Source of the DNA: Calothrix sp. PCC 7103
GTDB taxonomy: Bacteria; Cyanobacteriota; Cyanobacteriia; Cyanobacteriales; Nostocaceae
Direction: 5' to 3'
Length of the DNA stretch: 64,000 nt
NCBI RefSeq assembly: GCF_000331305.1
Contig: NZ_KB217483.1
Coordinates: 229,534-293,533, forward strand
The position numbers and the translations under genes were made by a program. The notes beneath the pieces were generated by a model. The model was not told the DNA's origin, did not search any database, and saw only the letters and a list, made by a program, of their open reading frames with translations. This document shows, one piece after another, positions 45,085-56,547 of this stretch (positions are counted from its first letter, which is position 1; each line of letters begins with the position of its first letter).

Positions 45085-45681
45085 ATGTCACATTACGAAA
45101 TTAATACCGGAAAACTCTTAACACCATTCCAACGTAAAATACTGCACAAAAGCTTAGAAGATAATTTAACAGAATCATACCAGCAGCGCATTCAAATTAT
45201 GTTGCTGGCAGATGAGGGTAAAACTCAAGCAGAAATTTGTCGTAGCTTGGGGTGTTGTGCAGCAACAGTAAGGCATTGGACACATATCGCGCGTACAGGA
45301 ATGGCTCACCAATGGCAGGATTGCCCAATTGGTAGGCGTAAGAGCGTTAATGACCAGCATTTAGAACGTTTAAAGGAATTGGTTAGCAATAGCCCTCGCG
45401 ATTATGGTTATCCTTTCCGGCAGTGGACAGGAACTTGGTTAAGCAGACATTTGGCAAAGGAATTTGGAGTTGATGTAACACCGCAGCATATAAATCGGCT
45501 GCTCAAACAAATGGGATTATCTACACGACAAAAACCCAACTGTGTCGAAGAAACCATTAATCAACAAAAAAATAGTTCACAGATATCTATTTCTGACCTG
45601 AAATCGCCTACTTTGGGCAATAGTTTTGAAATTTTACCTATTAATTTCGCTCCATTTGTAAAGCATTCTTCAAATTCATGA
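45085..45681 (+). CDS. Helix-turn-helix protein at head of bacteriocin export operon
   Basis: 198 aa. An N-terminal HTH (about 40-75, EGKTQAEICRSLGCCAATVRHW) is followed by a winged-helix part (about 85-150, WTGTWLSRHLAKEFGVDVTPQHINRLLKQMG) resembling transposase-type DNA-binding domains, but with no DDE core. Its stop codon overlaps the start of the exporter gene by 4 bp (ATGA), so it is translationally coupled to it. A regulator of the bacteriocin cluster is the simplest reading. A domesticated transposase N-terminus is a possible origin. Confidence 0.78.
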   Translation: MSHYEINTGKLLTPFQRKILHKSLEDNLTESYQQRIQIMLLADEGKTQAEICRSLGCCAATVRHWTHIARTGMAHQWQDCPIGRRKSVNDQHLERLKELVSNSPRDYGYPFRQWTGTWLSRHLAKEFGVDVTPQHINRLLKQMGLSTRQKPNCVEETINQQKNSSQISISDLKSPTLGNSFEILPINFAPFVKHSSNS

Positions 45682-48434
45682 CACAAAATCTATCCGAGCA
45701 GTTATCTTTAGAACAGCTCAATCATAATTTAGGATATTCCCTTTCAGAACAGCAGTGGAAGCAATATTTGCAGCAAGCTAAATTTTTAACTCCGAAAGTT
45801 GGCAAGTTCTGGGAAGGAAGCGAAGTTGAACCAGGTATTTATATTGTAGTTACTGGTAAAGTACGATTGCTTGATGATGAGGGTGAGTTAATTGCTACTT
45901 TGGAAGCAGGGGATTCCTTTGGAGAATTTACTTTGTTTTCGGAAGCAGGGTTAAAGCCTTATGGCGCCAGGGCAAGTGTAAATTTACAGCTTTGTTTTCT
46001 TTCGGGTCAGGTGTTATCGCCACTATTAGCTAAATATCCGCAAATTCGAGAATATTTGTGGGGCAAGGCACAAAAGTATAATTTGCATTCAGCAGATTCT
46101 CAGAACTCTGAGGTAACAGTAGGGAATCAATACTATGATAACTCTGCAATTGCAGCTAAAGCCCCGTCTTCCAATACCTATGCTGGAGAAGAAATTTACC
46201 CAGAACTAAAACGCCAGAAAAAAATCAGCAAAGCCTACTTCCCCAATCCTAGCGTTAGAGTTGGGCATTTATGGCAACGCTTTGTCCATCGCTATCCGTT
46301 TTTTGCACAACAAAGTTCCTCTGACTGTGGTGCTGCTTGTTTGGTAATGGTATCGCGTTATTGGGGAAAACGTTTTAGTGTCAATCGCCTACGGGATATT
46401 GCCAATGTTGACCGCGATGGTGCATCTTTACGTGGGTTGACAGCAGCAGCAGAGAGTATTGGTTTCAGTACGCGGCCTGTAAAAGCAAGTCTTGACCAGT
46501 TGGCAAAACAGAAATTACCTGCGATTGTTCATTGGGAAGGCAAGCATTACATTGTTCTTTATGAAGTTACACGGAAATATGTAATTGTTGCTGACCCTGC
46601 GATTGGTCAACGCACCCTTAGTTATGCTGAATTTAAGAAAGGTTGGACTGGTTATACCTTATTATTACAACCTACAGTTTTGTTTAAAAATATTAAGGAA
46701 GCCACTACCCCTTTTTGGCAATTTTTTGAGCTAATAAAACCTTACTATTTGGTAATATTTGAGGTGTTTATTGCTTCCATTTTTATCCAAATATTTGGAC
46801 TTATTACTCCTTTATTTACCCAGCTGATACTAGATAGAGTAGTGGTGCAACGTTCGGAACTAACCTTAAATGCTGTTGGGTTAGGACTGCTGATATTTAG
46901 TATATTCCGTGTGGCGATGACTGGGTTACGGCAATATCTTCTCGACCATACGGCAAGTAAAATAGATTTAGCGTTAGTTGTTGGTTTTATTCGTCATACT
47001 TTGCGATTACCTTTAAGTTTTTTTGAAACTCGTTATGTTGGCGATATTGTCTCTCGGTTGCAGGAAAATCGAAAAATTCAACGTTTTCTATCAGGGGAAG
47101 CATTATCCATATTACTGGATTTGCTTACAGTTTTTATCTATGTAGGATTGATGTTTTGGTATAGTTGGAAAATGGCATTGCTGGCATTAGTGATTATACC
47201 ACCATTTGCGATTTTGGCTTTAATCGCAACACCTTTTCTGCAAAAGATTTCACGAGAAATATTTGGTGCTGTTGCCCATGAAAGTAGTTATTTAATTGAA
47301 GCTTTGACAGGAGTGCGGACGATAAAAGCAACAGCAGTAGAACAAACAGTACGATGGCATTGGGAAGAGTTATTAGATAAAGAAATAAAAAATAACTTTT
47401 CTGGACAAGTTATTGGTAATAGACTGCAAATTTTCAGCAACTCAATTCAAGCATTAGTAACTACTGGTTTACTTTGGTTTGGTGCATATCAGGTTATTCA
47501 TAATCAGTTAACTATAGGTCAATTGGTGGCGTTTAATATGCTACTAGGAAATATTATTACACCATTTCAACGACTAACTGTACTGTGGAATGAAGTACAG
47601 GAAGTAATAATCGCTGTCGAACGTATTAATGATGTATTGGACACTGAAGCAGAGGAAGATTTGCATTATCAAGCAAGACAAACCTTAGCACAAATTCAAG
47701 GGCATATTCGTTTTGATAATGTTACATTCCGTTATCATCCCGAAAGCGATATTAATGTCTTAGAAAATCTCAGTTTTGAAGTCAAACCAGGACAAATGGT
47801 AGCGCTGGTAGGACGCAGTGGTTCTGGAAAAACTACCATTTCTAAATTAGTTTTAGGGCTGTATACACCTAGCGATGGTAAGATTTCCATAGATGGACAT
47901 GATATTACTAGCATTTCCCTACGTTCATTACGTTCTTCTGTAGGGGTAGTTGACCAAGATACATTTTTATTTGGTTCAACTATTCGAGAAAATATTACTT
48001 TAGGGTATCCAGGAGCAAGTTTATCAGAAGTTGTTGAAGCTGCAACTTTAGCAGGCGCCGATGAGTTTATTAAGAAGTTACCAATGGGGTATGAAACTAA
48101 AATTGGTGAAGGTGGGGGACTACTATCTGGTGGGCAAAGACAACGTATTGCGATAGCGAGGGCGTTGTTGGGTAATCCTAAATTATTAATTATGGATGAG
48201 GCTACTTCTCATTTAGATACCGAGTCGGAAAGAATTATTCAGCGTAATTTAAATACGATTCTCAAAGATAGAACTACTTTGATAATAGCTCATCGTTTAT
48301 CTACTGTGCGAAATGCTGATTTAATTTTAGTACTTGATAGGGGTGTGTTGATTGAGAGCGGTAATCATGAGGATTTGATGGCAAAGCGCGGGCATTATTT
48401 TTATCTCAATCAGCAGCAGAACCTAATCAGCTAA
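45678..48434 (+). CDS. cNMP-binding/C39 peptidase ABC exporter (HetC/SunT-like)
   Basis: 918 aa. An N-terminal cyclic-nucleotide-binding-like domain (about 35-140, EPGIYIVVTGKVRLLDDEG, GDSFGEFTLFSEAG) is followed by a linker and a C39 peptidase (about 205-330) with Cys217 in SSSDCGAACL, His in KHYIVLYE and Asp in VADPAIGQ. Then a six-helix permease (about 350-650) and an ATPase (Walker A GRSGSGKTT, signature LSGGQRQRIAIARAL, Walker B LLIMDEATSHLD). It should cleave the double-Gly leaders of the three CTB precursors encoded convergently at 51-52 kb and export them with the HlyD adaptor. Confidence 0.92.
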   Translation: MTQNLSEQLSLEQLNHNLGYSLSEQQWKQYLQQAKFLTPKVGKFWEGSEVEPGIYIVVTGKVRLLDDEGELIATLEAGDSFGEFTLFSEAGLKPYGARASVNLQLCFLSGQVLSPLLAKYPQIREYLWGKAQKYNLHSADSQNSEVTVGNQYYDNSAIAAKAPSSNTYAGEEIYPELKRQKKISKAYFPNPSVRVGHLWQRFVHRYPFFAQQSSSDCGAACLVMVSRYWGKRFSVNRLRDIANVDRDGASLRGLTAAAESIGFSTRPVKASLDQLAKQKLPAIVHWEGKHYIVLYEVTRKYVIVADPAIGQRTLSYAEFKKGWTGYTLLLQPTVLFKNIKEATTPFWQFFELIKPYYLVIFEVFIASIFIQIFGLITPLFTQLILDRVVVQRSELTLNAVGLGLLIFSIFRVAMTGLRQYLLDHTASKIDLALVVGFIRHTLRLPLSFFETRYVGDIVSRLQENRKIQRFLSGEALSILLDLLTVFIYVGLMFWYSWKMALLALVIIPPFAILALIATPFLQKISREIFGAVAHESSYLIEALTGVRTIKATAVEQTVRWHWEELLDKEIKNNFSGQVIGNRLQIFSNSIQALVTTGLLWFGAYQVIHNQLTIGQLVAFNMLLGNIITPFQRLTVLWNEVQEVIIAVERINDVLDTEAEEDLHYQARQTLAQIQGHIRFDNVTFRYHPESDINVLENLSFEVKPGQMVALVGRSGSGKTTISKLVLGLYTPSDGKISIDGHDITSISLRSLRSSVGVVDQDTFLFGSTIRENITLGYPGASLSEVVEAATLAGADEFIKKLPMGYETKIGEGGGLLSGGQRQRIAIARALLGNPKLLIMDEATSHLDTESERIIQRNLNTILKDRTTLIIAHRLSTVRNADLILVLDRGVLIESGNHEDLMAKRGHYFYLNQQQNLIS

Positions 48435-48469: not shown

Positions 48470-49975
48470 ATGTCAAATTCATGGAACGAACGGTTAATGC
48501 AGGATATATCAGAAGATGCTCCCGTTAAAGAATCATCAAAAGTAAATAATGATTGGTCTAATGTCACTCAGAATTCATTAAATAGTTTACCTCAAGTTTG
48601 GACAAGGGGAATATTATATTTTTTATTTTGCTTTGTTTCTATCATTTTACCTTGGGCGACGTTATCGAAAGTAGACGAAACTGGTGCTGCTAGGGGTAAA
48701 CTTGAACCGAAAGGTAAAACAGTTAAACTTGATAGTGCTGTTGCAGGAACTGTTGCAAATATTCTTATTAAAGAAGGTGAAACTGTCAAAGTCGGAGAAC
48801 CTGTACTAATTTTAGATTCGGAATTAGTTCAGGCAGAATTGCGTCAAGGTAAAGATAAATTAGAAGGTCAATTAAATAGACTGTCTCAATTAAAAATTCT
48901 CAAAAATCAATTAGTAGTAGCGCTTGCAACTCAAGAACAGCAAAGTCAAGCGCAAGAACTAGAAAAACAGGCACAAATTGAACAAGCACAACAGAGTTTC
49001 ATCGCTTTAAAAAATTCCTATGCAGTTCAAAACGAAGAAAAGTTAACACAAGTCAATCAGGCAAAACAAGCGATAGAAGAAACTCAAACAGCCAGTAAAT
49101 TAATGGCAAGCAGTTTAGCTAGCGCGAAACGGGAAGTAGAACGCTATCGCCAGTTAAAGGAGGTAGGGGCAGTACCAGAAATTAATGTGGTTGAAAAGCA
49201 GGATATTGCAAAAGAAAGACAAAGAATATATGAAAAAAGTCAATCAGACATTAAACAGGCTAGTTTACGTTTAGCGGAACAAAACAGTAACTATGAACGC
49301 ACTATTCGTCAAGCAAAGGCTGAAATTGAACAGGCATATTTGCGCTTGAAGGAGCAGCAAAGAAGTCATAAAACCTTAATTCACTCTGGCAAGCTAGCAG
49401 TTCTCAAAAGTGAGGAACAAATAAAGAACTTAGATACAGAAATGATGGGATTAAATGCCGAAATAACTCAAAGTAAGAACCAAATACAAAGCCTAAAATT
49501 GCAACTACAGCAAAGAAAAATAACATCCCCCATAACAGGTAAAGTCTTCCAACTACCAATTCAACGTCCCGGTTCAGTAGTTCAACCTGGAACAATGGTA
49601 GCAGAAATCGCACCTGAAGGTTCTCCATTAATTATTAGAGCAACAATGGCAACAACAGAAAGCGGTTCTTTAAAGAAAGGATTAGCAGTTAAAGTAAAAT
49701 TTGATGCCTATCCATTCCAAGATTATGGCGTTATCGAAGGAGAATTACTAAACATTTCTCCTACTACTGTAGACGTGGATACCCCAAACGGAAAAGTATC
49801 TGCATATAACTTAGAAATTATCCTGAAACAAGATTGTATACGTAGTAATAATCAATGTATTCCCCTACGTCCTGGCGATACAGCAACGGCAGAAGTAATT
49901 GTACGCCAACGACGAATTATAGACTTCCTTCTTGACCCATTCAAACAATTAGATAAAGGAGGCTTAAAATTGTAA
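48470..49975 (+). CDS. HlyD-family periplasmic adaptor
   Basis: 501 aa. One N-terminal membrane helix (about 47-66, RGILYFLFCFVSIILPWATL), barrel-sandwich halves (about 80-125 and 355-400, ITSPITGKVFQLPIQRPGSV), a long coiled-coil hairpin rich in Gln, Glu and Lys (about 125-350) and a C-terminal beta-barrel. It lies 35 bp after the exporter gene and bridges it to an outer-membrane TolC-type channel that is not in the window. Confidence 0.9.
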   Translation: MSNSWNERLMQDISEDAPVKESSKVNNDWSNVTQNSLNSLPQVWTRGILYFLFCFVSIILPWATLSKVDETGAARGKLEPKGKTVKLDSAVAGTVANILIKEGETVKVGEPVLILDSELVQAELRQGKDKLEGQLNRLSQLKILKNQLVVALATQEQQSQAQELEKQAQIEQAQQSFIALKNSYAVQNEEKLTQVNQAKQAIEETQTASKLMASSLASAKREVERYRQLKEVGAVPEINVVEKQDIAKERQRIYEKSQSDIKQASLRLAEQNSNYERTIRQAKAEIEQAYLRLKEQQRSHKTLIHSGKLAVLKSEEQIKNLDTEMMGLNAEITQSKNQIQSLKLQLQQRKITSPITGKVFQLPIQRPGSVVQPGTMVAEIAPEGSPLIIRATMATTESGSLKKGLAVKVKFDAYPFQDYGVIEGELLNISPTTVDVDTPNGKVSAYNLEIILKQDCIRSNNQCIPLRPGDTATAEVIVRQRRIIDFLLDPFKQLDKGGLKL

Positions 49976-50100
49976 ATTTTCCCCAAACTCTCCCACCCTC
50001 TTCCGAATTTTGCTGGGACGGAAACCTAACCCAATAATTTCTCTCTGCGTACTCCGCGTCTCTGTGGTCAGTCAATAAATCTAAATATTTGGAGCAAAAT

Positions 50101-50829
50101 ATGACACAAACAATCACTATCACCAACGAAGAAATCATCAACGAAATTAAGCTATCTTGCAAAATGCCTGAGATAGTCGAGCAAATAATTACCCGTAAAG
50201 CAATTGAAAATGCCGCAAAAGAAGCAGGTATCGAAGTAACCAACGAAGCACTCCAACAAACAGCAGATGCTCTACGATTAATGAGTAAACTCGAAACTGC
50301 TGATGACACCTGGGAATGGTTAGAAAAATTTAGTCTGACTTTAGATGACTTTGAACAAATCGCTTACACAAATTTCATTTCCGGACAATTAGCCAATCAT
50401 TTATTTGCAGATAAACTTGAGCGTTATTTCTTTGAACACCAGTTAGATTATGCAGGCGCCGCTTTGTACGAAGTTGTATTAGATGATGAAGACCTTGCGA
50501 TAGAGCTATTTTATGCGATAAAAGAAAGCGAAATAAGCTTTCATAATGTTACTTGCCAATACATAGAAGATAAAGAACTGCGCCGTAAAGGGGGGTATAA
50601 AGGAATAGTACACCGCAAAGATTTAAAGCCAGAAATCTCTGCCGCTGTTTTTGCTGCAAAACCACCACAACTTCTCAAGCCAATAGTCACCTCTAAAGGA
50701 GCGCATCTAATTTTAGTAGAAGAGTTAATTCAACCTAACTTAGATGATAAATTACGTGCGATGATTTTGTCCGATATGTTTTCGGAATGGCTAAAACAGC
50801 AAATAGAGCTATTTGAAATTATTCAATAG
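50101..50829 (+). CDS. Parvulin-type peptidylprolyl isomerase
   Basis: About 242 aa from ATG 50101 with a GGAGC RBS. An N-terminal helical SurA-like part (about 10-110) is followed by a PpiC domain (about 125-220: LAIELFYAIKESEISFHNV, RRKGGYKGIVHRKDLKPEI, GAHLILVEEL). There is no signal peptide, so it acts in the cytoplasm. Peptidylprolyl isomerases of this type often accompany cyanobacterial C39-exporter operons; a chaperone for the precursors or modifying enzymes is likely but unproven. A terminator follows. Confidence 0.85.
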   Translation: MTQTITITNEEIINEIKLSCKMPEIVEQIITRKAIENAAKEAGIEVTNEALQQTADALRLMSKLETADDTWEWLEKFSLTLDDFEQIAYTNFISGQLANHLFADKLERYFFEHQLDYAGAALYEVVLDDEDLAIELFYAIKESEISFHNVTCQYIEDKELRRKGGYKGIVHRKDLKPEISAAVFAAKPPQLLKPIVTSKGAHLILVEELIQPNLDDKLRAMILSDMFSEWLKQQIELFEIIQ

Positions 50830-50970: not shown

Positions 50971-51168
50971 TTAGCATACTTCCTTGGCGATACGACCAGC
51001 AATCGCGGCTCCTATGATTACACCCGCTATAAATGCCGCACCAGCAATAATGCTTCCACCCTTAGTTTCATTCAATTCAACATCTGTCAATTCGTTAAGA
51101 TAGCTTTCGGAATCAGTAAATAGTTCAGCACCAGAGTTACGTAGGTTAGAAATAGAAATTGTAGCCAT
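50971..51168 (-). CDS. CTB-family bacteriocin precursor 1
   Basis: 65 aa with a GGAG ribosome-binding site. The leader ISISNLRNSGAELFTDSESYLNELTDVELNETKGG is the CTB double-Gly leader, cut by the C39 exporter. The core of 27 residues is SIIAGAAFIAGVIIGAAIAG plus RIAKEVC: very hydrophobic, with GxxxG-like steps. It has only one Ser, at the first position, and one Cys, at the very end. If Ser were dehydrated and joined to Cys, a ring of the whole core would result; this is speculation. It has its own terminator and a 490-bp upstream spacer. Confidence 0.85.
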   Translation of the reverse strand: MATISISNLRNSGAELFTDSESYLNELTDVELNETKGGSIIAGAAFIAGVIIGAAIAGRIAKEVC

Positions 51169-51538
51169 TGAAATTTTACTCCATGTTTAAAATGTTTGAC
51201 TTTATTTAAAGATTTAAATTGCCTCATCTCATTTCCATCATTTAATCAAAATGTTTGAATTGAGATTAAGATTGCAATTGCCTCTTTTCTTTATTATAGT
51301 TTGTTATTTTATAGATTCAATAATATCAACAGTATCTAAATAACAAAAATGTTATAATTAAATTCGATATTCTATTGTTTTATTATTGTCATATATGGTA
51401 TTTAGCTAGTTTGCGAGTTTGGCAATTGTTTAGATAGAAAATATTTAGAACAAAATTAAAATATTATGGAAGCATCCCAATTTTTACTCTCATCCTCTAA
51501 GCCCTTATCCCTAATCGGATACTGCTGGCGAAATAAAT
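51169..51538. other. Spacer upstream of bacteriocin precursor 1
   Basis: 370 bp, AT-rich, with no ORF that has an RBS. It must hold the promoter of precursor 1 (minus strand). No clear operator was found. Confidence 0.45.
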
Positions 51539-51577
51539 AAAAAAACCTGCAACTTAATAAAATAAGATACAGGTTAT
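51539..51577 (-). terminator. Shared CCTGTATCTTA hairpin, copy 2
   Basis: On the minus strand: AACCTGTATCTTA, loop TTTTAT, TAAGTTGCAGGTT, then seven T. It ends the precursor 3-precursor 2 transcript. Confidence 0.8.
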
Positions 51578-51658
51578 ATAGTAATTATATTCGGTTTTTT
51601 AATAGAGTAAGGATTGACTAAATCCAGATGTACAGAGCGTGTAAAAGAAACTGACAAA

Positions 51659-51868
51659 TTATCGTAGTATAATTGTCTGCATTATGTCAGGAAATACAGG
51701 CTTTACAGTAAATATAGATGTCGGATATACAATAGGTGAAGTAATATAAAAATATCCACCTTTAGTCATGTCTAGTTCAGCTTCTGTAAGCTCATGAAGA
51801 TAGGTTTCTGTATCTATCAACAACTCAGAACCAGAGAGATTTAGATTTGAAATGGTAATTGTAGCCAT
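51659..51868 (-). CDS. CTB-family bacteriocin precursor 2
   Basis: 69 aa; GGAG ribosome-binding site identical in context to that of precursor 1. The leader is ITISNLNLSGSELLIDTETY and on to ELDMTKGG. The core of 31 residues begins YFYITSPIVYPTS and ends IMQTIILR. It has no Cys, is rich in aromatic residues, Pro and Ile, and has several Ser/Thr. Without Cys it cannot be a lanthipeptide by itself, so dehydrated or unmodified forms are the options. It lies 63 bp after precursor 3, probably in one transcript. Confidence 0.83.
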   Translation of the reverse strand: MATITISNLNLSGSELLIDTETYLHELTEAELDMTKGGYFYITSPIVYPTSIFTVKPVFPDIMQTIILR

Positions 51869-51931
51869 TGAGATTTTACTCCGAGCTAAGATTTTGTATT
51901 TGGATTGACTTGATTTTATGAAAGATACAAT

Positions 51932-52129
51932 CTACACTAATTTGCTTACTATTGAAGTAATTGTAATTGTTGTGATTGTATTAGTGGTAGGTCTAAATGT
52001 AGGAATAGGAAAACATCCACCCTTAGTCATGCCCAATTCGGTGTCTGTAAGTTCATGAAGATATGTTTCTGCATCCACAAACAAATCAGCACCGGAGATA
52101 CGTAAATCAGAAATAGAAATTGCAGCCAT
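51932..52129 (-). CDS. CTB-family bacteriocin precursor 3
   Basis: 65 aa. The leader is ISISDLRISGADLFVDAETY and on to ELGMTKGG. The core of 27 residues is CFPIPTFRPTTNTITTITIT plus SIVSKLV: a single Cys directly after the Gly-Gly and ten Ser/Thr residues. That composition, many Thr plus one Cys, fits a dehydratase/cyclase substrate better than an unmodified bacteriocin. It is the first gene of a two-precursor unit, 450 bp downstream of the HopA1-like gene. Confidence 0.83.
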   Translation of the reverse strand: MAAISISDLRISGADLFVDAETYLHELTDTELGMTKGGCFPIPTFRPTTNTITTITITSIVSKLV

Positions 52130-52482
52130 TGTAGTTTCGCTTCTAATTAAAGTTGTGTATTTAGATGAGGTATTAAATCGCCTCCTCCTATCACTATAAT
52201 CTGCTATTTAATAGATAGTTGCAAGTGTTTAAGCAAGAGTAAAGTAACAAAAAAGTTATACTTTTGTTATCCCATAAGTTATCTTTCAGCTAATTTAGAA
52301 TCTGGCGATTGATTTTATAAAGCGAATCGGAACATAATTGAAAAATTAAGACTCCCGACTTAATTATGGCTCAAAAACCTTATTAAATCGTTGCAGTGAG
52401 GGGTCAGACTTTCTGTGTCATAAAAGGGAGGGGCGAGGCATAATAGCCTCCCTCGACCTAACCTCAGAATCTAGTAAAAAAT
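52130..52482. other. Spacer between HopA1-like gene and precursor 3
   Basis: 350 bp, AT-rich, with no supported gene. It should carry the promoter of the precursor 3-precursor 2 unit on the minus strand. Confidence 0.45.
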
Positions 52483-52523
52483 AAAAAATCCTGCATCTTA
52501 AATAAAATAAGATACAGGATTTT
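52483..52523 (-). terminator. Shared CCTGTATCTTA hairpin, copy 3
   Basis: On the minus strand: AAAATCCTGTATCTTA, loop, TAAGATGCAGGATTTT, then T-rich. It ends the APH-HopA1 transcript with the same hairpin as the two precursor units. Confidence 0.8.
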
Positions 52524-52578
52524 GTTCGTAGTTGGTATTTAACCCCTCTTACTGAATGATTTAAGGACTAAAGCCTAA

Positions 52579-53688
52579 CTATAAACCTCCTATAAGCTCA
52601 TAAATATCCTCAGAACCAGCATTCAAATAAGCTCGCTCCACATCAATACCTAATCGCGAGAACTCCTCAAGAATAGCCTTCATCTTCCCTACTGCCGAAT
52701 TCTCGCCCTGATACCAACTTTCTAACAATCCATTCGCCACAATTTGACATCTGTTCATGCCAAAACTTTCCTGACTACCAAATTTCTGGTCTGGTTCTTC
52801 TGCTAAACCTAGCCCAGGCGCCAGTTGTTTGGTAAATAAGGGAATGTCAGAAATAAAATGCGATTTTTTTTCCTGGTAAACAACCTCTAAAACTTCTTTA
52901 ACAGCTGGATAATCTTTCTTGTCAAAGTATAATACTCCAGCATCATAACGTTTATAATCGCCTGGGTTATAAAGAACTTTGAATGTAAAGGAAAGAGCAA
53001 TAGCATTTAACTGCTCAGTTAAGTCACGCATAACTTCCACAGCACCATTAGGTGTAAAATTGAAATAGATACGTGTTATTTGCTGTTGTCCTTCAGAATG
53101 GTGGTGACTTTGTATACCTGCATTACCTACCGCCATGTAAAAGCCATTTTGCACTATATTTTTAGGTAGACGAATCGCGACTATTTCACCAACAGCAGCA
53201 GATTGTTTATCAAGCTGAAGGTGCTTGTCTCTATGTATATGCAGCCTCAAAGTTCCCTTTTTCACTGCTAAAGTGCCGTCTTCCTCTTCCTTGATTACAG
53301 ACCAACCTGGGTCAAAATAGCCTTCCCCTGAATTATTTTCATGCAACTGCTGGTAAAACGCTACATTTACTCCTAAAAATGTATTATTCTCCAAATCTAG
53401 AATTAAACTATTCTCATCTGCATCTGGCGCCAGTATATTCTGTAAATAACCGTTGTAATAAATGCCATAGAGAAAACTTCGCAATTGCAGGCTCATATAT
53501 TTCTGCTGCATTTGCTCAGGTAGTTTCTGGAAACGCTCAACAGCATCACTTGGCAATTCTAAGGGTTTATAACCTGGGTGGCGAATCGAAAAATCAGGAT
53601 AGATTTCAACATTGTGAAGGATATCTTCTAAAACCTTGAGCAATCGCCCAGTTATCTGATTTAGTGGATTATTGAGTAATTGTGCCAT
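52579..53688 (-). CDS. HopA1-family protein, putative class V lanthipeptide lyase (LanY-like)
   Basis: 369 aa, no signal peptide. The C-terminal two thirds carry the HopA1 family pattern: RIYFNFTPNGAVEVMRDLTE, DYKRYDAGVLYFDKKDYPAV, then DIPLFTKQLAPGLGLAEEP and ESFGMNRCQIVANGL. HopA1 was named for a type III effector. HopA1-like proteins are the phospho-Ser/Thr lyase component of class V lanthipeptide synthetases, where they act with an APH-like kinase. Both occur here: the APH gene ends 17 bp upstream. The neighbouring CTB precursors are the likely substrates. The N-terminal third is not recognised. Confidence 0.8.
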   Translation of the reverse strand: MAQLLNNPLNQITGRLLKVLEDILHNVEIYPDFSIRHPGYKPLELPSDAVERFQKLPEQMQQKYMSLQLRSFLYGIYYNGYLQNILAPDADENSLILDLENNTFLGVNVAFYQQLHENNSGEGYFDPGWSVIKEEEDGTLAVKKGTLRLHIHRDKHLQLDKQSAAVGEIVAIRLPKNIVQNGFYMAVGNAGIQSHHHSEGQQQITRIYFNFTPNGAVEVMRDLTEQLNAIALSFTFKVLYNPGDYKRYDAGVLYFDKKDYPAVKEVLEVVYQEKKSHFISDIPLFTKQLAPGLGLAEEPDQKFGSQESFGMNRCQIVANGLLESWYQGENSAVGKMKAILEEFSRLGIDVERAYLNAGSEDIYELIGGL

Positions 53689-53704
53689 TTGTCTATTTTT
53701 GGAT

Positions 53705-54841
53705 TTATACGATGTTTAAAGTCTCTGTGCCAAAAATGGTTGGCATTGATTCATAAGGGCGACACAGCAATGATTTTGCAACCTGAAGCATAACAATACC
53801 TGTATTACCAAAAGATTTTTGGTATTGAATCATTGCTTGAATTTGTTGAATTAAGGCGAACCCTGCAAATTGAATTGCTCGCTTTAAGAAATCTGGTCGT
53901 TGTTCTAGAATTTTTGGGAATTTTTCTAGATAAGCTTGAGTTAATATCAAAATTGAAGGTTGAAGTTTGTCTAAGGGGGTTACAGCTAGGCCTAAAGATT
54001 CATCAATGCTCAAAGATTTGCTAATGACTAAGCTACCTAACCAAATTTGTACATAGCTCGCGATGATAGTACCTAAATCAAAAGCTGGGTCTCCCCAAGC
54101 TGAACGTTCCCAATCTATTAATCGCACAGTTGAGTCTGTTGTTTGTTCCCAGTTACTATGTACCAGAATGTTATTGAGTTTTAGGTCATTGTGGGTAAGA
54201 CAAGAAGCAGTAAAGGCATTCGCTACCTCTGCTATTGCTTGCCCTAAACTATCATATCTTTGATACAAAGCAAAAAATTTCAACCCATCAGCAGGTACCA
54301 TGCCAAAGATTTCTGGTTCAATCCTGTCCAAACTTTGTTGTAAATCTTTCACCAGATTAATTTTGAGATTATCTTGTTTCTGAGAGAAGAAATCCCGATA
54401 TTCTTTGTGATTGAAAGTCTCACCGTGAATAGATGCTAAAAGGGTACCAATCGAGAAAGCAACTTTACTAGGAAAATTCTGCTCTTTTGTATAAAAGTCC
54501 ATCAAATCTCGATATTTATCTAAATATTTAACGACAAGAATTGAATTGTCTCTATCAAAATGTAATACCTCTGGGAGAAATAGATGAAGATTATTTACTG
54601 AAGAAAACGTTAGTAAAAATTCTTGAATTTTCCACTCTGCTAAAAATTCTCCAACTGCTTTCCCTTTCTGGTTATGGCGTTCCTGTTTAACAAGAAATTT
54701 TTCGTCATCTAAAAAAGTCACTAGTAAATTAAAATTTTTGGCTGTTAGTGGTTCTACCTTACTTAGAGGTCGCTTTGGTTGATTGCAATGCTTAAGTAAG
54801 TAATCGCAAACATTATGCTCGTTTATTAGAAATGTCATCAT
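53705..54841 (-). CDS. APH-like kinase, putative class V lanthipeptide kinase (LanK-like)
   Basis: 378 aa. Aminoglycoside-phosphotransferase fold: N-lobe about 20-115 (KFLVKQERHN holds the ATP-binding Lys), catalytic loop CLTHNDLKLNNILV (HxDxxxxN) and metal site RLIDWERSAWGDPAFDLG. No antibiotic-resistance context is present. The HopA1 gene follows by 17 bp, and precursors with many Thr lie further downstream. In class V lanthipeptide systems an APH-like kinase phosphorylates Ser/Thr of the precursor before elimination by the HopA1 partner. That is the proposed role here, by analogy. Confidence 0.8.
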   Translation of the reverse strand: MMTFLINEHNVCDYLLKHCNQPKRPLSKVEPLTAKNFNLLVTFLDDEKFLVKQERHNQKGKAVGEFLAEWKIQEFLLTFSSVNNLHLFLPEVLHFDRDNSILVVKYLDKYRDLMDFYTKEQNFPSKVAFSIGTLLASIHGETFNHKEYRDFFSQKQDNLKINLVKDLQQSLDRIEPEIFGMVPADGLKFFALYQRYDSLGQAIAEVANAFTASCLTHNDLKLNNILVHSNWEQTTDSTVRLIDWERSAWGDPAFDLGTIIASYVQIWLGSLVISKSLSIDESLGLAVTPLDKLQPSILILTQAYLEKFPKILEQRPDFLKRAIQFAGFALIQQIQAMIQYQKSFGNTGIVMLQVAKSLLCRPYESMPTIFGTETLNIV

Positions 54842-55622: not shown

Positions 55623-56547
55623 ATGATTTGTAGTACAAATTTGCTACCCATTAAATTGATTCCCCTAGAAGGTAAAAAACCTCTCTTACCTCCGACCTCC
55701 GACAAAAAACCTTCAAATTCCACAGATATTCGTTGGTTAAAAGTACAAGAATTTTTACGAAGTGTAAGCTTGGCGCCAAACAGTCGTAAATTATACGAGC
55801 GTGAACTACGAAGATTCTTAGCTTGGAGTGAGCTAGGTTATCATGAACTCCGCACACGACATTTAGCACATTATAAAGAGTATTTAACTGAAGAAGTTAG
55901 CACCGATAAAGGTAGACCGCTTGCAAAGTCCAGTATAAATGCAGCATTAGGCGCCTTAAAAAGTTTTTTCCACTGGTTGCGCGACACATACCCTGATATC
56001 ATCGAAGTCAACCCAATGGCAAGAGTAAAATTTGAGAAATTACCACTTCCTGGTGCCCAAGACTTGGCACCATCAGAAGTAGAACAAATTAGGACAGCAT
56101 TAAATAACTTAGGAGAAACCAAACTACGCGACACTGCATTAGTCCATATATTATGTCATGGTCTGCGCGCTTCTGAAGTAGCAAGCTTAAACGTTGGCAA
56201 CTATAACGGCAAACTATTATATATAAAGGCGCTAATATTCGCACAAAAGTCGCTAATTTTTCGCACGGTCATGCAACTTTTTTCGCTATAAGCTTTATAC
56301 TGCAAGGAATATTGCCCAAGGTGGAATCCAAGCATGATATAAGTAAAAGCGCTCTCCAGTATCTACCACAATGCTTTTGGACTCCGTGCCAGTCAAATCC
56401 TGGAATTTGCACCCCAAAAGCGAATTGTTCTGGAAATTAGCGCGCATGTGCGAAAATAAGTGCCTGAAACAACGTAATCACGTTCAATAATTAGCATCTT
56501 TAACGCGAACCTACATCGACACCCAAAATCACTATAAATATGGCTAA
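55623..56547 (+). pseudogene. XerC/D-like tyrosine recombinase, interrupted
   Basis: The N-terminal core-binding domain (about residues 38-120: WLKVQEFLRSVSLAPNSRKLY) and the first catalytic box (ILCHGLRASEVASLNVGN) are intact up to about 56227. There a 237-bp element begins and the frame soon ends. After the element a remnant 56482-56547 encodes LASLTRTYIDTQNHYKYG with the probable nucleophile Tyr, with one internal stop. About 70 residues between the boxes are missing, so the insertion came with a deletion. Confidence 0.75.
56228..56464. mobile_element. 237-bp element with repeated TTCGCAC ends
   Basis: The left end has GGCGCTAATATTCGCAC and a second CGCTAATTTTTCGCAC 21 bp on. The right end, read inverted, has GGCACTTATTTTCGCAC and CGCTAATTT. 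It is non-coding. Repeated transposase-site-like words at both ends resemble Mu/Tn7-type or IS ends. No target duplication is visible. Confidence 0.5.

What the first reader, a model, noticed from the sequence alone, without database searches (positions are those of the whole stretch)
50971..54841. Candidate class V-like lanthipeptide system in a cyanobacterium
Seen: an APH-like kinase (HNDLKLNN, IDWE) and a HopA1-like protein (PLFTKQLAPGLGLAEEP, SFGMNRC) adjacent on the minus strand, followed by three CTB double-Gly precursors, convergent to a C39 exporter, HlyD and PPIase. Known: in class V lanthipeptide synthetases a separate APH-like kinase and HopA1-like lyase dehydrate Ser/Thr. Inference: these two enzymes modify the CTB peptides. 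No cyclase, decarboxylase or methyltransferase is visible in the window. A new minimal version, or cyclisation without a dedicated enzyme, is possible. CTB bacteriocins are usually treated as unmodified.
Basis: partly seen in the sequence, partly recalled or inferred. Interest (0 to 1): 0.88.

Follow-up and report, generated by a model that had tools for sequence, protein, structure and literature searches.

The report
Cyanobacterial kinase–lyase peptide dehydratase cluster
A cyanobacterium carries a two-enzyme machine that very probably strips water from serines and threonines of three small exported peptides; this pairing was already described in print, but I found no known product and no ring-forming enzyme beside it.

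Summary
The genes are there as described: three double-Gly precursors, a HopA1-family protein and an APH-like kinase on the minus strand, converging on PPIase, HlyD and a C39-ABC exporter. The best structural matches of the two enzymes are the two subunits of the lexapeptide dehydratase LxmKY, and the lyase residues are present. So a class V-type dehydratase is supported. "Lanthipeptide" is not: no LanC, LanD or LanX was found at the locus, the genome's LanC domains are in three LanM-sized ORFs elsewhere, and one of the three cores has no Cys. The association is already published (Eyles 2021 "Family 1A"; related: Liang 2022, Wang 2011). My survey adds: 45 of 47 leader-bearing genomes also have HopA1; another HopA1 clade, often beside phylloquinone genes, has no leader peptides in the fetched stretches and lacks the catalytic Lys in 41 of 41; and in 8 relatives a LanM-like protein near the pair has substituted dehydratase residues but kept its presumed zinc-ligand positions. 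The last two may each be close to one evolutionary event. Best reading: the window peptides become Dha/Dhb-containing peptides, cleaved and exported by the C39 transporter, with little or no thioether cyclisation.

The parts
53705..54841 (-). APH-fold peptide kinase (LanK/LxmK-like); K52, E69, H217, D219, K221, N224, D243 present
   Evidence: PF01636; NF038156 E 7e-23, below cut-off; AF2 pLDDT 79.9, best PDB match 9dk3_A LxmK E 1.1e-13, methylthioribose kinases almost as good; residues
52579..53688 (-). HopA1-family phosphoSer/Thr lyase (LanY/LxmY-like); R206, K237, R247, Y254 taken as equivalent to CaoY R187, K219, R229, Y236 (by spacing and by the alignment to LxmY; no CaoY sequence was at hand)
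   Evidence: PF17914 E 2e-59; PDB 9dk1_B E 1.5e-8 by sequence; AF2 pLDDT 82.0 with residues 241-247 under 50, best PDB matches 9dk2_B/9dk1_B/9dk3_B; residues
51932..52129 (-). precursor P3, 65 aa; core CFPIPTFRPTTNTITTITITSIVSKLV (2 Ser, 8 Thr, 1 Cys)
   Evidence: leader profile E 1.5e-19; likely orthologues in L179 and L180 keep Cys1, a PT(T) and a TSIV segment
51659..51868 (-). precursor P2, 69 aa; core YFYITSPIVYPTSIFTVKPVFPDIMQTIILR (2 Ser, 4 Thr, 0 Cys)
   Evidence: leader profile E 4.3e-18; likely orthologue in L180
50971..51168 (-). precursor P1, 65 aa; core SIIAGAAFIAGVIIGAAIAGRIAKEVC (1 Ser, 0 Thr, C-terminal Cys)
   Evidence: leader profile E 2.7e-20; weak Bacteriocin_IIc hit E 0.017; near-identical core in L179, Cys absent in the nearest L180 core
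50089..50829 (+). PpiC-type peptidyl-prolyl isomerase, convergent
   Evidence: PF00639 E 5e-8; same gene cluster in 44 of 70 non-MEN contexts and 0 of 41 MEN contexts
48470..49975 (+). HlyD-type adaptor
   Evidence: PF13437, TIGR01843 over cut-off
45678..48434 (+). C39 peptidase-ABC exporter with N-terminal cNMP-binding domain (the 'long type' of Wang 2011)
   Evidence: PF00027, PF03412, PF00664, PF00005
45085..45681 (+). HTH protein, overlaps the exporter start by 4 nt; possible regulator
   Evidence: HTH families in Pfam; an HTH-annotated gene in the same place on NZ_CP050443.1

Best explanation
A peptide-dehydration and export cassette. The three precursors carry a shared double-Gly leader. 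The APH-like kinase phosphorylates Ser/Thr in the cores and the HopA1-like lyase eliminates the phosphate, giving Dha/Dhb (chemistry shown for the relatives CaoK/CaoY, inferred here). The C39 domain of the convergent exporter then cuts after Gly-Gly and the ABC/HlyD pair exports the product, with the PPIase perhaps assisting. No cyclase was found at the locus, so the product is expected to be mainly a dehydrated peptide: at most 10 dehydrations for P3, 6 for P2, 1 for P1. Any thioether (Cys in P1 and P3) would need spontaneous closure or an enzyme in trans. Shown: genes, homology, active-site residues, fold match, co-occurrence. Inferred: the substrate, the extent of dehydration, the lack of rings, the biological role.
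For: (1) Best structural matches of the two proteins are the two subunits of one solved dehydratase, LxmKY. (2) Equivalents of CaoY R187, K219, R229 and Y236 are present in the window protein and in 81 of 81 aligned rows (80 named loci plus window). (3) The kinase is adjacent on the same strand for 109 of 112 HopA1 ORFs and in 78 of 80 named loci. (4) 45 of 47 leader-bearing genomes also have HopA1, of 386 searched; 116 of the 150 leader matches that one search listed lie within 10 kb of a HopA1 match. (5) Natural control: a HopA1 clade with no leader peptide in any of 41 fetched contexts lacks the catalytic Lys in 41 of 41. (6) Cores in named loci: 133 of 135 contain Ser/Thr; Thr is 10.9% against 4.1% in the HopA1/kinase proteins. 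(7) In 8 relatives a LanM-like protein near the pair has a substitution at one or more of the CylM D252/D347/H349 equivalents while the presumed zinc-ligand positions are kept 8 of 8; 9 of 9 LanMs not near the pair keep the three residues.
Against: No product or activity is known. The kinase scores far below the LxmK equivalog cut-off (81 against 315 bits), and methylthioribose kinases match its model almost as well as LxmK. The Lys/leader association rests mostly on one evolutionary event: independent-pairs test not significant; 9 of 112 rows discordant, 3 of them with leader but no Lys. The LanM result may also be one event, and in CylM H349A and D252A kept some activity. Thr enrichment was compared with enzyme composition, not with unmodified bacteriocins. 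P1 has one Ser and no Thr in its core. 34 of 150 listed leader matches are not near HopA1. The CaoY His57 equivalent was not tested.
Confidence: 0.72

Rival explanations
1. A true (methyl)lanthionine-forming system: after dehydration, Cys in P1 and P3 closes rings spontaneously or through one of the genome's three LanM-like proteins acting in trans.
For: P1 and P3 each have one Cys, kept in one (P1) or two (P3) of the nearest cores in L179 and L180; 82 of 135 cores in named loci have Cys, 71 of them with Ser/Thr 2-7 residues before it (no chance baseline computed); the genome has three LanC-domain ORFs of 1072-1104 aa.
Against: No LanC, LanD or LanX found at the locus; 12 of 18 sampled genomes with this HopA1 group have no LanC domain; loci with a LanC-domain ORF nearby have Cys in 25 of 26 cores (mean 3.1) against 58 of 110 (mean 0.8) without; P2 has no Cys; the own-genome LanMs keep their dehydratase residues, so look like separate class II systems.
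Confidence: 0.17
2. The peptides are unmodified class II-type bacteriocins and the kinase-lyase pair acts on something else.
For: P1 resembles hydrophobic class II peptides (weak Bacteriocin_IIc hit); the MEN-clade copies show that the pair can exist without leader peptides nearby; 34 of 150 listed leader matches lie away from HopA1.
Against: Genome-level and locus-level co-occurrence; the 4 leader peptides found in this genome all sit at HopA1 loci; the copies without peptides have lost the catalytic Lys; Thr-rich cores in several loci.
Confidence: 0.08
3. The peptides are phosphorylated or only transiently dehydrated; the final product is a phosphopeptide or a reduced (D-amino acid) peptide.
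For: A gene related to aldo/keto reductases follows HopA1 in 14 of 80 named loci (one such protein checked against Pfam), which could reduce Dha/Dhb (inference).
Against: No such gene found beside HopA1 in the window; the tested lyase residues are present, so phosphate should not persist.
Confidence: 0.03

Closest known systems
Eyles et al. 2021 'Family 1A' cyanobacterial HopA1-phosphotransferase clusters (PMC8153245; passages and section 16 read)
   Same: Cyanobacteria, HopA1 plus phosphotransferase, multiple double-Gly precursors with conserved leaders and variable cores lacking conserved Ser/Thr/Cys
   Different: No difference established; their peptide lists were not readable here, so neither the leader sequence nor whether this locus is among their 183 clusters was checked
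Class Va lanthipeptide systems (lexapeptide LxmKYXD, cacaoidin CaoK/CaoY; PMC9486802 parts 1-3 of 5 read; PMC12291118 passages)
   Same: LanK- and LanY-like enzymes with the same lyase residues and fold
   Different: No LanD or LanX found, C39 double-Gly export, Cys optional in the core. Liang's 'type-B' cyanobacterial candidates may be the same peptides, but their figure was not seen
Wang et al. 2011 group II cyanobacterial bacteriocin clusters (PMC3140520; passages read)
   Same: Long-type C39 transporter, HlyD, SurA/PPIase, several precursors, extra modification genes
   Different: The text has no 'APH' or 'kinase' and is not among papers holding 'HopA1' and 'cyanobacteria', so its extra modification genes could not be equated with this pair
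HopA1 effectors and OspF/SpvC lyases
   Same: Appear in the same PDB fold search
   Different: Host-targeted effectors, not peptide maturation; much weaker matches than LxmY

Membership tests
Class V-type (LanKY) Ser/Thr dehydratase | LanY: HopA1-fold lyase with the CaoY residues K219, R187, R229 (mutated by Liang 2022) and Y236 | tested here: met
   PF17914; LxmY best PDB match; R206, K237, R247, Y254. CaoY His57 equivalent not tested
Class V-type (LanKY) Ser/Thr dehydratase | LanK: APH-fold kinase adjacent to LanY | tested here: met
   Adjacent gene, LxmK best PDB match, kinase residues present; but below the NCBIfam equivalog cut-off
Class V-type (LanKY) Ser/Thr dehydratase | Dehydration of the precursor in vitro or in vivo | not testable with these tools
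   Needs co-expression and mass spectrometry
Class Va lanthipeptide | LanD Cys decarboxylase and LanX cyclase | tested here: not met
   Locus proteins scanned; genome has 2 flavoprotein-family hits, both on contig C7; LanX judged only by absence of a second kinase-like gene among the scanned locus proteins
Class Vb lanthipeptide | LanC cyclase in or near the cluster | tested here: not met
   3 LanC domains in the genome, all in 1072-1104 aa ORFs outside the window
Lanthipeptide (any class) | (Methyl)lanthionine in the product | not testable with these tools
   P2 has no Cys, so cannot form one alone (sequence)
Eyles Family 1A RiPP cluster | Cyanobacterial HopA1-phosphotransferase pair with several double-Gly precursors with conserved leaders | tested here: met
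   description read. Leader identity with their peptides not checked
Wang group II bacteriocin cluster | Long-type C39 transporter, HlyD, SurA/PPIase, precursors | tested here: met
   group I shares these genes without the extra modification genes

The most novel reading that the evidence does not exclude
LanKY is a general, swappable dehydration module of cyanobacterial double-Gly peptides. Its basic output is a thioether-free Dha/Dhb peptide, as in the window. Some lineages add an aldo/keto reductase, others a LanM-like protein whose own dehydratase has decayed so that it works as cyclase only (a class II/class V hybrid). Nostoc-clade arrays make nearly Cys-free peptides with a conserved KS[FY] core motif, which suggests a physiological rather than antibacterial role.
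Probability: 0.45. Interest if true: 0.75.

Novelty: new member of a known kind. Interest (0 to 1): 0.5.

Why it matters
A 2025 review says class V lanthipeptides have so far been found only in actinobacteria (PMC12328550, passages read), while here the enzyme pair's HopA1 member turned up in 56 of 386 cyanobacterial genomes, mostly in the window's own family. The locus is small, has a single enzyme pair and three different cores, and so offers a direct test of whether the pair alone makes thioether-free dehydropeptides. The LanM-like neighbours with substituted dehydratase residues are a sharply testable case of one enzyme class taking over a step from another.

Tried and rejected
(b) That the pair is confined to RiPP loci: 41 of 111 contexts (MEN clade) have no leader match, and 29 of these 41 lie beside phylloquinone-type genes. 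(c) A claim of repeated independent Lys loss with leader loss: the tree test did not support it (one independent pair on supported branches).

Led nowhere: the 'CTB bacteriocin' literature search returned only generic cyanobacteria papers. The plasmid search with one leader gave one weak record. The pdb_via library was unavailable. I made no promoter, terminator or RNA-family analysis and did not scan all window genes.

Limits: the named-locus set is the best 80 of 328 relatives found through two sequence patterns, so it favours close relatives. 'Neither LanM nor reductase' loci (56 of 80) include some cut by contig ends. Leader absence means no match to my leader profile (E under 0.5) in the fetched stretch, at most 9 kb a side and sometimes cut by a contig end; other leader types would be missed. 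The clade labels WIN/NOS/MEN/OTH are mine, drawn by eye from a FastTree and then checked on a quick IQ-TREE tree (MEN 99, NOS 89 SH-aLRT; WIN needs 2 changes, so is not one side of a branch). Peptides dropped before counts: 14, 1 WIN and 6 NOS without a clear Gly-Gly, plus 1 of each without a Met. Fisher p of 1.2e-5 ignores relatedness. CaoY numbering was mapped by spacing and through LxmY, not with the CaoY sequence.
Full report
What is there. All genes named in the finding exist at the stated coordinates. On the minus strand the order is kinase (53705-54841), HopA1 protein (52579-53688, 16 nt later), then P3, P2, P1. The plus strand carries HTH, C39-ABC, HlyD and PPIase and converges on P1. 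The window lies in an 11.58 Mb cyanobacterial genome with three HopA1 copies and four leader matches, three in the window and one at a second HopA1 locus.

The enzymes. By sequence the only PDB relative of the HopA1 protein under E 0.5 is 9dk1_B (E 1.5e-8); Foldseek names 9dk1-9dk3 as the lexapeptide dehydratase complex LxmKY. The AF2 model of the HopA1 protein (pLDDT 82.0, residues 241-247 under 50) has the LxmY chains as its best three matches (E 2.3e-15 to 4.7e-14, TM 0.63-0.65 by query); two HopA1 effector structures follow, then class III synthetases and SpvC, all over E 1e-3. The AF2 model of the kinase (pLDDT 79.9) has LxmK 9dk3_A first (E 1.1e-13), with methylthioribose kinases almost equal. 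All 36 kinase relatives scanned match the LxmK model NF038156 at E <= 1e-3, but the window kinase is well below its cut-off. In CaoY, K219, R187 and R229 were tested by mutation and Y236 is the match to SpvC Tyr158 (PMC9486802 part 2). I take K237, R206, R247 and Y254 as their equivalents, from spacing and from the alignment to LxmY. They are conserved in 81 of 81 aligned rows (80 named loci and the window); the kinase residues in 77 of 78, the odd one a fragment.

Survey. HopA1 occurs in 56 of 386 cyanobacterial genomes; the leader profile in 47 of 386. 45 genomes have both. Leader only: G357 and G212 (the latter E 0.008). HopA1 only: 11, of which six carry only MEN-clade copies. I fetched 110 HopA1 contexts plus the window; one 66-aa fragment match was left out and one match already inside a fetched stretch was not fetched again. 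They hold 112 HopA1 ORFs, 109 with the kinase adjacent on the same strand; of the other three, one is a HopA1-kinase fusion (L139), one belongs to a tandem pair of HopA1 copies with a single kinase found (L050) and one has no kinase found (L082).

Three arrangements. 'WIN' (18 contexts, incl. the window): 27 of 29 leader matches are downstream of HopA1 on its strand. 'NOS' (41): 153 of 163 are upstream, often tandem arrays. 'MEN' (41): no leader match; 29 of 41 have at least one of five gene clusters whose representatives carry thioesterase, AMP-binding, MenC, UbiA or chorismate-binding domains, 26 at least two; 12 have none in the fetched stretch. PPIase relatives occur in 44 of 70 non-MEN contexts and 0 of 41 MEN; HlyD 31 of 70 and C39-ABC 28 of 70, neither in MEN. 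The catalytic Lys is present in 18 of 19 WIN rows (19 because L050 holds two copies; the odd row is L050_5742, which the tree sets apart), 41 of 41 NOS, 0 of 41 MEN and 8 of 11 OTH. MEN is one supported branch (SH-aLRT 99), so this is close to a single event; the independent-pairs test is not significant. Discordant rows: 6 with Lys and no leader, 3 with leader and no Lys.

Cores. In unnamed WIN contexts and the window 27 distinct peptides: 13 with Cys, none without Ser/Thr. NOS 153 distinct: 2 with Cys, none without Ser/Thr, 109 with KS[FY]. In the named loci (nearest: Calothrix sp. NIES-4101, 83%, and Dulcicalothrix desertica PCC 7102, 84%) 135 distinct cores from 66 of 80 loci: 133 with Ser/Thr, 82 with Cys, Thr 10.9% against 4.1% in the HopA1/kinase proteins; L219, L223, L226 and L211 have strikingly Thr-rich cores. 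The four Thr of the kintamdin core converted to Dhb, with a HopA1-like enzyme and a kinase homologue responsible for dehydration, are a precedent (PMC10880069, passage).

Cyclase. Of 18 genomes with WIN HopA1, 6 have any LanC domain, always in an ORF of over 1070 aa, and only G091 has one within 4 kb of HopA1. Among named loci 10 of 80 have a LanC-domain ORF within 4.5 kb downstream (two are fragments, L204 and L205); 14 have an aldo/keto reductase relative; 56 have neither. LanC-domain loci have Cys in 25 of 26 cores, the others in 58 of 110. The LanM-like proteins at 8 loci (7 of these named ones, plus unnamed L131) each have at least one substitution at the equivalents of CylM D252, D347 or H349 (kept in 1, 5 and 1 of 8), residues important for dehydration in CylM, although H349A and D252A kept some activity (PMC4550811 passages). 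The positions I take for the LanC zinc ligands (roles recalled) are kept in 8 of 8. Nine LanMs not near a HopA1 match keep D252, D347 and H349 in 9 of 9. Two rows were set aside: L254 (near HopA1, residues intact, other branch) and L266 (residues substituted, same branch as the eight, not near HopA1). The eight form nearly one branch, so this too may be one event. I found no report of it in searches 'LanM'+'HopA1' and LanK/LanY/LanM/cyanobacteria; listings seen, not all papers opened.

What is known. Eyles et al. 2021 report 1,340 HopA1 proteins, 96% with a phosphotransferase, and Family 1A: 570 double-Gly peptides in 183 clusters, exclusive to cyanobacteria, cores without conserved Ser/Thr/Cys. 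Liang et al. 2022 found that type-B candidate precursors near LanK/LanY are all cyanobacterial. I saw no characterised cyanobacterial product of such a cluster in the listings.

Verdict. A member of a known cluster family without a known product, with good evidence for LanKY-type dehydration and against an on-site cyclase. The extra findings (catalytic loss in the MEN clade, LanM-like proteins with substituted dehydratase residues near the pair) support the mechanism and are the more novel part.

Noticed in passing
L129 (G000 C7:6363070-6381609) and 40 other MEN contexts: A HopA1+kinase pair without leader peptides, beside phylloquinone-type (men) genes in 29 of 41 contexts; the lyase Lys is absent in 41 of 41 and the kinase HxDxK Lys in 27 of 41. 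Function unknown, possibly a repurposed non-catalytic pair.
   Followed up: partly
L222, L216, L218, L250, L186, L207, L212, L131: LanM-like proteins near LanKY with substituted dehydratase residues and kept zinc-ligand positions: candidate class II/V hybrid with LanM as cyclase only.
   Followed up: partly
NOS contexts, e.g. L081 4142-7066, L074 11700-13975, L056 5129-7286: Tandem arrays of near-identical, mostly Cys-free peptides with conserved cores (KS[FY] in 109 of 153 distinct peptides) and in many loci a distinct single peptide next to the kinase; unusual for bacteriocins, may be a physiological signal.
   Followed up: partly
L137 7579-10161 (-) and L139 8971-11472 (-): Natural fusions: a HopA1 ORF of 861 aa that also matches LanC, and one of 834 aa that matches both HopA1 and the kinase.
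   Followed up: no
L259 (NZ_CP050443.1, Tolypothrix sp. PCC 7910 plasmid): A very similar cassette (kinase, HopA1, aldo/keto reductase, PPIase, convergent PPIase-HlyD-C39-HTH) on a plasmid typed as mobilizable.
   Followed up: no
window 55623-56291 (+): Short integrase-like ORF (Phage_int_SAM domains, only a weak match to the start of the catalytic domain) about 0.8 kb upstream of the kinase gene.
   Followed up: no
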